64,000 bases of DNA, from IMG/VR virus record IMGVR_UViG_3300048580_000994, positions 18,430 through 82,429 of that record. One strand, 5' to 3'. Shown here in pieces: positions 12,373 through 54,760 of this stretch. This DNA is from a virus. Numbering within the stretch: the stretch's first letter is position 1; the number at the start of each line of letters is the position of its first letter. Below the pieces are notes generated by a model that worked only from the letters and a program-made list of their open reading frames with translations, made no database searches and was not told where the DNA came from. Made by a program: the position numbers and the translations under genes.

Positions 12373-12458
12373 GCGGGTAGCAGACATCTGGGGGTGTCAC
12401 CGGTCTTCCAAACCGGCTACTGTAAAAGGTATTTTGGATTCGATTTCCACTACCCGCT
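12373..12458 (+). tRNA. tRNA-Gly(TCC)
   Basis: Acceptor GCGGGTA/TACCCGC and anticodon stem CCGGT/ACCGG with loop CTTCCAA. The variable region is unusually long (about 18 bases). Confidence 0.82.
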
Positions 12459-37170: not shown

Positions 37171-38586
37171 ATGGATATTATTTTAAAAAAAGCCAGATTT
37201 ATATCATTTTTTATTATTGCCAGTATAACGTTGGTAATAGTTATTAGTTTTTATTTCATGACCATGAATAATATTGACCAAGATCGTTTGGTTAAGATGA
37301 CTAATATTTATGGTCGAGGGGAAAGTGTTATAAAAGTATTAGATAGACATGTTCATAACTCAATCGAAGATGTTTATTGGGCATTGCGAGTATATGAAAA
37401 TAAATGGGTTGACACACCAGATGATGAATTTGTTGTTTGGGTTAGTAAGAATACTGTGAACACTTTTTATGCATCTAAGATAATAATCAATAGTGTTAGT
37501 GGTGTCTCTTATAGATATGAAGACAATAAAATAACCAAACAAAAAAGTGATAATAATTTTAATCAAAGTAGTATTATTGTTGGAACTAATTTGGTTATGG
37601 AAAATTCAAATGATGGGTTGGAAATAATTTTTAAATATACTATTAAGGGGAAGGGTGTTATTAATATTCATGTACCACAAAATTATTTGGTTGATATTTT
37701 TTCAAATCTTAGGCATCATTGGGAAATTTTGATAATAGATGTTACAAATAATATATATTCTGATTTAGTTAATGAAATTGATAAATCAATTTCTTCGTTT
37801 GATAAAAATAAAATATTAAATGATTATAAATGTAATACCAAACTGCTAATAAAAAATGAAAATGATGATTTTTCGTTTCTTGGTAATTGTTATAAATCTG
37901 TTTATTATAATTTATATTATGTGGTATTATATGATTATACTTATGAAATGTCTGGCTTTGTTGATAGAAGTAAGAAAACATTATCATCATTTTCATTGTT
38001 TGTTTTTATGATATTATTAATTGGTATAGCGTTATTAATAGTTTCTGATAAACAAATTAGAGTATATGTTGAGTTAAAACAAATGAAAGACGAGTTTGAG
38101 GAATTGTCGAGTATTGATGAATTAACTTCTGTTACCAATCGCAGGGCTGTTATGAAAAGGTTGGTTCAAGAAATGACCAGAATGTCTCGTCATGGTCGCC
38201 CACTATCCATTATGTCATTTGATATAGATTTTTTCAAAAAAATCAATGATACTTATGGGCATAATGTTGGAGATATAGTTTTGAAGAATTTGGTGATTGA
38301 GGTACAAAAATGCCTTCGTCAAACAGATTTGCTTGGTAGAATGGGTGGTGAAGAATTTTTGATATTGTTGGGCGATACCAAATTAGATGGTGCTACTATA
38401 TTGGCTGAACGTATTCGTGAAACTATACAAAACATACAGATAGTTAAAGACATTAACATCACCATTAGTGTTGGTGTTGGTGAATTTAAAAAGGGAGAGA
38501 TTACCAGTCAATTATTAGCACGTGTTGATTTGGCATTATATAGAGCTAAAAATGAGGGAAGAAATAAGGTTTGTATATCCATTTAA
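37171..38586 (+). CDS. Membrane diguanylate cyclase (GGEEF)
   Basis: 471 residues. Membrane segment at about 11-30, periplasmic sensor region to about 275, second membrane segment at 280-300, then a GGDEF domain. The domain has FDIDFFKKINDTYGH, RMGGEEFLIL and, five residues before GGEEF, an RQTD inhibitory site. Residues needed for making c-di-GMP from two GTP are intact. High c-di-GMP favours attachment over swimming, so the phage could shift host lifestyle on sensing an external signal. GATAAATA lies just upstream. Confidence 0.92.
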   Translation: MDIILKKARFISFFIIASITLVIVISFYFMTMNNIDQDRLVKMTNIYGRGESVIKVLDRHVHNSIEDVYWALRVYENKWVDTPDDEFVVWVSKNTVNTFYASKIIINSVSGVSYRYEDNKITKQKSDNNFNQSSIIVGTNLVMENSNDGLEIIFKYTIKGKGVINIHVPQNYLVDIFSNLRHHWEILIIDVTNNIYSDLVNEIDKSISSFDKNKILNDYKCNTKLLIKNENDDFSFLGNCYKSVYYNLYYVVLYDYTYEMSGFVDRSKKTLSSFSLFVFMILLIGIALLIVSDKQIRVYVELKQMKDEFEELSSIDELTSVTNRRAVMKRLVQEMTRMSRHGRPLSIMSFDIDFFKKINDTYGHNVGDIVLKNLVIEVQKCLRQTDLLGRMGGEEFLILLGDTKLDGATILAERIRETIQNIQIVKDINITISVGVGEFKKGEITSQLLARVDLALYRAKNEGRNKVCISI

Positions 38587-53124: not shown

Positions 53125-53499
53125 ATGGGTGATAACGTTGTGACTTTTGAAAATGGGCTGGCTCGTCTTCTCCCCATTGATGAATCCAAGTTTGAAGATT
53201 TGGGTGTGAGTCCCTTGGGCTTTGACGATGAATACACTGAATTTATGGAAATGTGGGACGAAGAATTTATGGTTCGTCTAAACGAGCGTCGTGAAGCATA
53301 CGAGCATCTTCACCCAAGCCCTGAATGGGATGCTATGGACAAGATTGCCTACGATGAGGTTATTCTGCAGATGGACAAACTTCATGGTACCAACGTTTCT
53401 GGTAAAATGATAGAGCAGAAGATTGGGCGAGTTATGACCAATGGTGAATCACGAGATAATGTTATCCATGTTGATTTCACAAAGAAGAAGGGGAAATGA
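53125..53499 (+). CDS. Acidic protein of unknown function
   Basis: 124 residues. GGAG upstream of the ATG. Acidic N-terminal half (FEDLGVSPLGFDDEYTEF), and a C-terminus NVIHVDFTKKKG. The stop overlaps the next start. Confidence 0.62.
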   Translation: MGDNVVTFENGLARLLPIDESKFEDLGVSPLGFDDEYTEFMEMWDEEFMVRLNERREAYEHLHPSPEWDAMDKIAYDEVILQMDKLHGTNVSGKMIEQKIGRVMTNGESRDNVIHVDFTKKKGK

Positions 53500-53689: not shown

Positions 53690-53718
53690 TTGACAACCTT
53701 TTGAAAAACCATTATAGT
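53690..53718 (+). promoter_or_regulatory. Sigma70-type promoter for the non-coding block
   Basis: TTGACA, 17 bases, TATAGT, followed by no ORF for about 690 bases. Confidence 0.7.
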
Positions 53719-54412
53719 GTATGAATGAATTGGGAAGAAACCTTCCCTGCTTTTTGAAATGTGAATAAGATTGTCGTGTTAAATGGAAAGGAGGGTTCGA
53801 ATCCCTCGCCTACGAGCGTAACAGCCATGGAACGACCCCAGGTTGAGAGTGGGGCGCGGCAATTTTAATTTTTATTAGGGCTAATAGTTAAAACGGTGGG
53901 CTTAGAGGCAGCCATCCGATAATGAGTGAGACGAACCGCCCATCCCGCTTCAGGGGTGGGGATACAACGTGGATAGTAAAAGATCACCCCTTAACAGGTA
54001 AGGATCGATTTCTCTTTGGCGTAGCAGCACATTTAACTATTATAGATATTATAGTTTGAGAATATAGTTGGCGATAAGGCGGGGCATCCTGATAGTCTTA
54101 TCGTAAAAGCTGACAGGGATTGTTGGAACGGCAGTAGCAACTATTTTGAATATGGGCCAAGTCTAGGGCGGCTTGGTAGGTTGGCCCGCAAGGGGCCTCC
54201 CAAGTTGGGTTTCGATTACCCATTGGTCCACGAATTTTAGTTTGGGCATGGAAATGATTCGCCCACGATCTCTCTAACGTTTGCAGACTTGAAGGTCGCA
54301 GTAAATCGTTTGTCGTGGTCCCCGAAGAAGTGAAAATCTTCCCCAAAGCCAATGTAACGGGTTGATAGTGACTGAAGATAAGGAACTATTCAAAATATGA
54401 AAGGAAAATAAT
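53719..54412 (+). ncRNA. Large structured non-coding RNA candidate
   Basis: No credible ORF in about 690 bases with its own promoter. Many helices are visible: GGGAAG/CTTCCC, GAGGG/CCCTC around TTCGAAT, CCCCA/TGGGG, GGTGGGC/GCCCATC, GGGGTG/CACCCC, AACTAT/ATAGTT, GATAAG/CTTATC, CCACGA/TCGTGG. A tRNA-like segment lies inside (54155-54231). Size, phage location and nearby tRNAs recall the ROOL and GOLLD classes, but I cannot match a consensus. Confidence 0.55.
54155..54231 (+). tRNA. tRNA-like segment within the large RNA
   Basis: GGGCCAA pairs with TTGGTCC as an acceptor, and GGGT/ACCC with TTCGATT forms a T-arm. The middle (GGCC/GGCC with loop CGCAAGG) does not give a normal anticodon loop. 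Confidence 0.45.
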
Positions 54413-54760
54413 ATGGCAAAAGCACCAAAACCAAAATTTCATTTAAAATTCAAACCATATAGTGATGATGAAATCCCAAACCCAGATAATTTTAACGCTT
54501 ATCGTCAACCATTAGCGAGACTTGGGGATTTGGTTTATTGTGGTTCGAATAGGGTAATGAGTGCAGGAACAGTTGGAAGATTGGTTGGGTTTAAATCACA
54601 ATTTAATGAAGTATGGGCAGAAATCGAATGCCTTGATGGTGAAACCCGCCAGTTTCGAACATACTATCCTGGTGTGATTGATGAAACCCAGCTTCAAGAA
54701 GTGAAAGATTATTATATCAACGTTGAACAACGACCAGAACGAATTAAAGTGTCTTGGTAA
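54413..54760 (+). CDS. Protein of unknown function
   Basis: 115 residues. AAAGGAAAA upstream. RLGDLVYCGSNRVMSAGTVG suggests an SH3-like or KOW-like beta barrel. Role unknown. Confidence 0.6.
   Translation: MAKAPKPKFHLKFKPYSDDEIPNPDNFNAYRQPLARLGDLVYCGSNRVMSAGTVGRLVGFKSQFNEVWAEIECLDGETRQFRTYYPGVIDETQLQEVKDYYINVEQRPERIKVSW

What the first reader, a model, noticed from the sequence alone, without database searches (positions are those of the whole stretch)
53719..54412. ~690-base structured non-coding block with its own promoter
A sigma70-type promoter leads into a GC-richer, ORF-free stretch full of strong hairpins, with a tRNA-like piece near the 3' end. Large ornate RNAs of the ROOL and GOLLD classes occur in phages near tRNAs, and this fits by size and setting. 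Sequence identity to them is not established.
Basis: partly seen in the sequence, partly recalled or inferred. Interest (0 to 1): 0.63.

Follow-up and report, generated by a model that had tools for sequence, protein, structure and literature searches.

The report
Phage RNA mimicking a ribosome domain
Inside this unannotated stretch of a tRNA-rich phage lies a previously undescribed RNA, shared by well over a hundred phage contigs, that copies the part of the bacterial ribosome which binds protein L11 (the GTPase-associated centre) and carries an extra RNA domain inserted into it, suggesting that phages make soluble decoys or docking sites for ribosomal proteins.

Summary
The block is real non-coding DNA behind a good sigma70-like promoter, but its overall folding energy is ordinary and it is neither ROOL nor GOLLD. 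Its core, 53882-54042, is a 161-nt RNA module homologous to the GTPase-associated centre of 23S rRNA (GAC; E. coli 1051-1108; the uL11-binding domain, helices 42-44), split between positions 1090 and 1091 by a structured insert. The same two-part element occurs in 139 distinct loci: named jumbo and other tRNA-rich phages, IMG/VR contigs and a few bacterial contigs. Of 119 loci found by the 3' half alone, 109 carry the 5' half upstream; at least six of the other ten are cut too soon to tell. In 103 dereplicated cores, an unbiased scan of all column pairs puts exactly the GAC pairs (H42, H43, 1082-1086) plus a new insert stem on top. Phage-specific marks are U1101A with U1090, and relaxed tRNA/factor-facing loop tips. 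No Rfam family covers it and I found no paper on it. Neighbouring tRNAs lie on the same strand. Best mechanism: a trans-acting RNA that binds uL11 (fold strongly supported; binding inferred). Two phage lineages also carry an L1-stalk mimic.

The parts
53690..53718 (+). sigma70-type promoter-like site (TTGACA-17-TATAGT) upstream of the RNA
   Evidence: 11 of 12 consensus matches; expression not tested
53882..54042 (+). Whole GAC-like RNA element (helices 42-43-44 of 23S rRNA with an insert)
53882..53892 (+). H42 5' strand (TAATAGTTAAA), 11 bp perfect with 54032-54042
   Evidence: (repeat I5); H42 covaries over 103 cores
53893..53927 (+). GAC 5' half = E. coli 23S 1056-1090 (ACGGTGGGCTTAGAGGCAGCCATCCGATAATGAGT)
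   Evidence: 18-mer GGCTTAGAGGCAGCCATC exact in 40 IMG/VR contigs; position-by-position comparison with 33 bacterial 23S sequences
53894..53918 (+). H43: 53894-53896 pairs 53916-53918 (1057-1059/1079-1081) and 53899-53902 pairs 53910-53913 (1062-1065/1073-1076)
   Evidence: covariation A-U/C-G and U-A/G-C/A-U/C-G
53919..53923 (+). AUAAU = 1082-1086 loop closed by the pair 1082-1086 (A-U here)
   Evidence: C-G 37, U-A 36, A-U 17 of 103
53928..54018 (+). Insert between 1090 and 1091: stem Pins 53928-53931/54011-54014, hairpin 53939-53960, then UUUG linker
   Evidence: Pins covaries (z 6.7-10.3 over four pairs); hairpin from MFE
53982..54006 (+). Insert class A hairpin GATC-ACC-CCT(TAAC)AGG-TAAG-GATC (conserved CACC..GGUAAGG, covarying tetraloop stem)
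54019..54031 (+). GAC 3' half = 23S 1091-1103 (GCGTAGCAGCACA), H44 upper hairpin with hexaloop; phage-specific A at 1101
54032..54042 (+). H42 3' strand (TTTAACTATTA)
53791..53807 (+). Isolated tRNA/tmRNA-type T-arm GAGGGTTCGAATCCCTC; probably a tRNA remnant, membership in the RNA unproven
   Evidence: tmRNA model 347-363 only, 10.5 bits
54139..54229 (+). Sub-threshold tRNA-like piece; membership in the RNA unproven
   Evidence: ARAGORN -ps85 only

Best explanation
What it is (strongly supported by sequence): a phage-encoded RNA whose core is a homologue of the GTPase-associated centre of 23S rRNA (the ~58-nt uL11-binding domain, helices 42-44). The H44 5' strand is opened between 1090 and 1091 to hold a variable structured domain, and the H42 stem closes the module. 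How it most likely works (inferred): the RNA acts in trans. It folds into the GAC tertiary structure and is bound by the host ribosomal protein uL11, possibly also by the uL10-bL12 stalk complex through H42. This either takes these proteins (or factors that look for the GAC) away from ribosomes, or tethers the insert domain to them; the insert is the phage-specific effector part. Location in tRNA clusters on the tRNA strand suggests co-production with phage tRNAs and a role in remodelling translation during infection. Steps shown: the RNA element, its GAC architecture, its spread, its linkage to tRNAs. Steps inferred: transcription, uL11 binding, effect on translation. My confidence in the identity is about 0.95, in uL11 docking as the function about 0.5.
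For: 53-nt GAC of E. coli 23S confirmed; same module in phages. 109 of 119 loci picked by the 3' half alone also hold the 5' half upstream on the same strand; of the other 10, six have at most 204 bases of upstream sequence held, one has 284, and two (L110, L121) show a 5' half with matched H43 changes GGA/TCC; a 5' half lies downstream in 1 of 165. Unbiased column-pair scan of 103 dereplicated cores: the top 13 pairs are exactly H42, H43 1057-1081 and 1058-1080, the 1082-1086 pair and the new insert stem (z 6.3-12; best other pair 3.4). RNAalifold without constraints on 14 class-A elements gives H42, H43, insert stem, tetraloop hairpin and H44 hairpin. Against 33 distinct bacterial 23S GACs, core positions (1059, 1060, 1063, 1064, 1072, 1074, 1079, 1084, 1085, 1088, 1091-1094, 1098-1100) are invariant in both; U1101 is A in 103/103 phage cores, with U at 1090 in 100/103 (a standard U-A pair where E. 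coli has A and U); loop tips 1067, 1068, 1070, 1096 are relaxed in phages. uL11 is the known partner of this RNA fold (PMC8373061, PMC10161774). 89 of the 165 elements have a tRNA within 1 kb, all 89 on the same strand.
Against: No binding or expression data. No phage protein gene recurs next to the element and bL12 genes are rare in carriers (4 of 40 records with any match). The insert in H44, and in about 18 elements a second insert between 1077 and 1079, could affect protein access; I could not model it in three dimensions. In the window itself the element also lies upstream of an ORF (54413), so a cis role there cannot be excluded.
Confidence: 0.6

Rival explanations
1. tRNA or translation-factor handler: the GAC touches the elbow of incoming tRNA and the elongation factors in the ribosome, and the phage RNA uses the same surface to hold, protect or channel phage tRNAs; an L1-stalk mimic in some phages would do the same for the elbow from the other side.
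For: Placement inside tRNA arrays on the same strand; in two lineages a second RNA resembling the 23S L1 stalk, a known tRNA-elbow binder (PMC4810234), lies 0.5-3.5 kb from the GAC element.
Against: The factor/tRNA-facing loop positions 1067, 1068, 1070 and 1096 are the ones relaxed in the phage RNA, while the fold core is invariant. The L1-stalk mimic is rare: of 40 carrier records only those of L140, L063 and L111 have it.
Confidence: 0.2
2. Pure RNA building block: the compact GAC fold is reused as a rigid junction that organises the variable insert, without any ribosomal protein.
For: The insert varies (25 to 441 nt after position 1090 in type I) while the junction is fixed; the loop-loop core is kept.
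Against: Identity to 23S extends over nearly every core position, far more than a generic T-loop junction would need; descent from rRNA plus continued selection for the same surface is simpler.
Confidence: 0.15
3. Cis-regulatory leader: in the window the RNA is the 5' leader of the ORF at 54413-54760 and uL11 or another protein switches its expression.
For: Promoter 53690-53718 and a ribosome-binding-like AGGAAAAT before ATG at 54413; no terminator-like site on the + strand between element and ORF.
Against: In many loci the element sits between tRNA genes with different or no ORF behind it; no neighbouring protein family recurs; it is 370 nt from the ORF.
Confidence: 0.08
4. ROOL or GOLLD relative.
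For: Size of the ORF-free block, phage, tRNA array.
Against: No Rfam ROOL/GOLLD match even at E<=10 or in 20 related loci.
Confidence: 0.01
5. A non-functional fragment of host 23S rRNA picked up by recombination, or degraded tRNAs.
For: High identity to 23S in the core; isolated T-arm and weak tRNA-like piece nearby.
Against: Compensatory changes across 103 diverged cores, a phage-specific fixed A1101 and a conserved insertion point; no further 23S sequence around it.
Confidence: 0.01

Closest known systems
GTPase-associated centre (L11-binding domain) of 23S rRNA, E. coli 1051-1108, H42-H44
   Same: Same helices, same 1082-1086 loop pair, same invariant core; the 36-nt 5' half matches 23S almost letter for letter
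   Different: Stand-alone in phages, split between 1090 and 1091 by a 25-441-nt insert (sometimes a second insert at 1077/1079), A1101 and U1090 fixed, H42 sequence unrelated, loop tips relaxed
ROOL and GOLLD RNAs (phage ornate RNAs, PMC12286853)
   Same: Phage/prophage, near tRNA islands, structured, function unknown; ribosomes have been reported to bind GOLLD in pull-downs (cited in that paper)
   Different: No sequence or covariance-model match; much shorter conserved unit; rRNA-related core
Autogenous r-protein leaders that mimic rRNA sites (e.g. L10 leader, L1 operator)
   Same: rRNA protein-binding site copied into another RNA
   Different: Not in front of r-protein genes; phage-borne; whole GAC domain rather than a partial mimic; no Rfam leader match
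L1 stalk of 23S rRNA (H76-H78), seen as a second mimic in L111, L140, L063
   Same: Another ribosomal stalk RNA copied into tRNA-rich phages
   Different: Separate RNA, only two lineages found

Membership tests
23S rRNA GTPase-associated centre (as homologous RNA domain) | H42-H43-H44 arrangement with 3-bp H43a, 4-bp H43b and the 1082-1086 loop | tested here: met
23S rRNA GTPase-associated centre (as homologous RNA domain) | Invariant core nucleotides of bacterial GACs | tested here: met
   103 phage cores against 33 distinct bacterial 23S sequences
23S rRNA GTPase-associated centre (as homologous RNA domain) | Uninterrupted H44 | tested here: not met
   insert between 1090 and 1091 in all elements; hence not filed as a GAC of a ribosome but as a GAC-derived domain
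23S rRNA GTPase-associated centre (as homologous RNA domain) | Lies within a 23S rRNA gene | tested here: not met
   no other 23S sequence nearby
23S rRNA GTPase-associated centre (as homologous RNA domain) | Binds uL11 | not testable with these tools
   needs a binding assay
ROOL | Match to the Rfam ROOL covariance model | tested here: not met
ROOL | Phage origin next to tRNA islands | tested here: met
GOLLD | Match to the Rfam GOLLD covariance model | tested here: not met
tRNA or tmRNA | Detectable tRNA/tmRNA in 53719-54412 | tested here: not met
   only a T-arm and a sub-threshold piece
r-protein autogenous leader | Upstream of the r-protein gene it controls | tested here: not met
   in the window the neighbouring ORFs have no r-protein match; no protein family recurs next to the elements

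The most novel reading that the evidence does not exclude
Tailed phages have a general strategy of soluble ribosomal-stalk RNA mimics: a GAC mimic (common) and an L1-stalk mimic (rare) made with the phage tRNAs, which take uL11 and uL1 or their partners off host ribosomes, for instance leaving L11-poor ribosomes that cannot trigger the RelA stringent response, while variable insert domains add further functions.
Probability: 0.25. Interest if true: 0.95.

Novelty: categorically new. Interest (0 to 1): 0.87.

Why it matters
As far as I could find, it would be the first described family of phage RNAs built around a copied ribosomal RNA domain. It is widespread in tRNA-rich and jumbo phages, missing from Rfam 15 and from every phage annotation examined, and gives a directly testable prediction (uL11 binding) about how such phages take over translation. 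It also offers a natural, heavily varied GAC for studying RNA folding and uL11 recognition.

Tried and rejected
ROOL/GOLLD and all other Rfam families: no match. Folding energy of the whole block as evidence: z -0.28, dropped. tRNA cluster remnants: only sub-threshold. A second copy of GCGTAACAGC behind the T-arm (about 53818-53827) looked like another GAC half; a scan for T-arm + GCGTAAYAGC found only 2 viral contigs, so treated as chance. Relatives of the flanking proteins 53125-53499 and 54413-54760: none found, so the extent of the transcript outside 53882-54042 could not be settled by synteny. Linked protein partner: none recurs in more than 11 of 139 distinct loci; bL12 not linked. Six of 18 GTDB hits of the 3' pattern lack the 5' half, close to the ~7 expected by chance in 257 Gb, so not counted. 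Plasmid hits of the 36-mer and many 'phage' hits are, as far as annotated, 23S genes or contaminating 23S contigs and were not used. Literature: ten searches over PMC open papers found no description; subscription papers and preprints were not searchable. A fold call with an over-long item (62) and three calls with disallowed arguments returned nothing.

Full report
Observation. The window is bases 18430-82429 of an 82,429-base virus record with 32 ARAGORN tRNAs in the window and 10 more upstream, plus homing endonucleases and DNA methyltransferases. The reported block starts behind a TTGACA-17-TATAGT site (53690-53718), has no convincing ORF and is GC-richer (0.451 against 0.350). Its folding energy as a whole is ordinary (z -0.28). 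The tRNA-like 3' piece is below ARAGORN and Rfam thresholds.

The lead. Rfam gave nothing, including ROOL and GOLLD at E<=10. Blastn against phages gave short weak matches mainly at one place, query 246-289 = window ~53895-53938, in unannotated gaps of Serratia phage BF, Erwinia and Xanthomonas jumbo phages and Pseudomonas phage UNO-G1W1 (regions). The shared word, GGCTTAGAGGCAGCCATC, resembles the L11-binding domain of 23S rRNA; the E. coli 53-mer I wrote down was confirmed at 100% in annotated 23S genes. The word occurs in 40 IMG/VR contigs, with a second shared word, TTTGGCGTARYAGCACACC, further downstream.

The element. Of the 119 loci checked, 109 carry the upstream word on the same strand; of the ten that do not, six have at most 204 bases and one 284 bases of upstream sequence held, and two show a 5' half with matched H43 changes, GGA/TCC. 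The upstream word is found within 700 nt upstream in all 165 collected elements (this is partly how they were collected) and downstream in one. In GTDB contigs 12 of 18 hits are complete elements; the other six are about the number expected by chance. Named carriers include Serratia BF, Cronobacter GAP32, Pectobacterium CBB, Xanthomonas XacN1, XbC2 and XaC1, Aeromonas 4_4572, and Pseudomonas pf16, Astolliot, Milchi and UNO-G1W1. None is annotated as RNA at the match.

Structure. For 103 dereplicated cores I scanned all pairs of 88 columns. The 13 best pairs are exactly six H42 pairs, two H43 pairs (1057-1081, 1058-1080), the 1082-1086 loop pair and four pairs of a new stem that opens directly after 1090 and closes before the UUUG that leads to G1091 (z 6.3 to 12; the next pair 3.4). 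RNAalifold on 14 elements of the window's insert class recovers the same helices without being told them. In the window H42 is 11 perfect base pairs, 53882-53892 with 54032-54042. The insert class of the window (class A, 31 elements) ends in a CACC-CCN-tetraloop-N'GG-UAAGG hairpin whose closing pair varies as G-C, A-U, U-A and G-U with GNRA or UAAC/UAAA loops. About 18 elements have a second insert between 1077 and 1079, after which the strand that pairs with H43 resumes.

Comparison with 23S. Against 33 distinct bacterial 23S sequences (gathered; comparison), the fold core is invariant in both. Phage cores differ at fixed points: A instead of U at 1101 in all 103, U at 1090 in 100, G at 1054 in 96. 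In E. coli 1090 and 1101 are A and U; the phage has U and A, a matched swap next to the insertion point. Positions 1067, 1068, 1070 and 1096, in the loop tips, are relaxed in phages. From established knowledge, those tips contact tRNA, factors and thiostrepton, while the core carries uL11; uL11 stabilises this fold and has negligible affinity for the GAC without Mg2+ (PMC8373061, PMC10161774).

Setting. 89 of 165 elements have a tRNA within 1 kb, all 89 on the same strand, 58 within 60 nt; random positions in the same loci fall within 1 kb of a tRNA in 40% of draws, so the distance alone (54%) is a modest excess and the strand agreement and close adjacency are the stronger signs. Twenty related loci hold no Rfam family over the element. 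No protein family recurs next to it.

Second mimic. Searching whole E. coli 16S and 23S against the loci, the only other recurrent stretch is 23S 2104-2176, the L1 stalk, in L111, L140 and L063, on the strand of the GAC element and 0.5-3.5 kb away, outside any 23S gene. L140 and L063 are related to each other (88%); L111 is separate. The L1 stalk holds tRNA by the elbow (PMC4810234).

Interpretation. Shown: a widespread, selected, phage-borne RNA family with a GAC core and a variable insert. Inferred: that it is transcribed as a separate RNA, that uL11 binds it, and that this changes translation. I rate uL11 docking as most likely because the conserved part is the fold core rather than the loops for tRNA and factors; tRNA or factor handling is the main rival because of the tRNA arrays and the L1-stalk mimic. 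Novelty rests on Rfam 15 and ten searches of open-licence papers; unpublished or subscription work is not excluded.

Noticed in passing
L111:1723-1807 (+), L140:373-456 (-), L063:1626-1709 (-): RNA resembling the L1 stalk of 23S rRNA (E. coli 2104-2176) outside any 23S gene, on the strand of and near the GAC element; two independent phage lineages.
   Followed up: partly
L162 (element at 531), L160, L155, L156, L124 and others: Second insertion site between 23S-equivalent 1077 and 1079; in L162 this insert is about 450 nt long. L124 has two GAC elements in a row.
   Followed up: partly
window 12373-12457: Rfam tRNA-Sec model hit (49.1 bits, gathering 47) that ARAGORN does not report; a selenocysteine tRNA in a phage would be unusual.
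   Followed up: no
L009:6723-6944: Permuted tmRNA (RF04321, 73 bits) a few hundred bases from the GAC element of another phage contig.
   Followed up: no
window 37171-38586: Phage protein with a GGDEF diguanylate cyclase domain (PF00990, 147 bits).
   Followed up: no
window 53818-53827: A second GCGTAACAGC, the same 10-mer as the H44 hairpin, directly behind an isolated T-arm; a wider scan found only two similar contigs, so probably chance.
   Followed up: yes
window 53732-53747: Terminator-like hairpin (GGGAAGAAACCTTCCC TGCTTTTTGA) immediately downstream of the promoter-like site.
   Followed up: no
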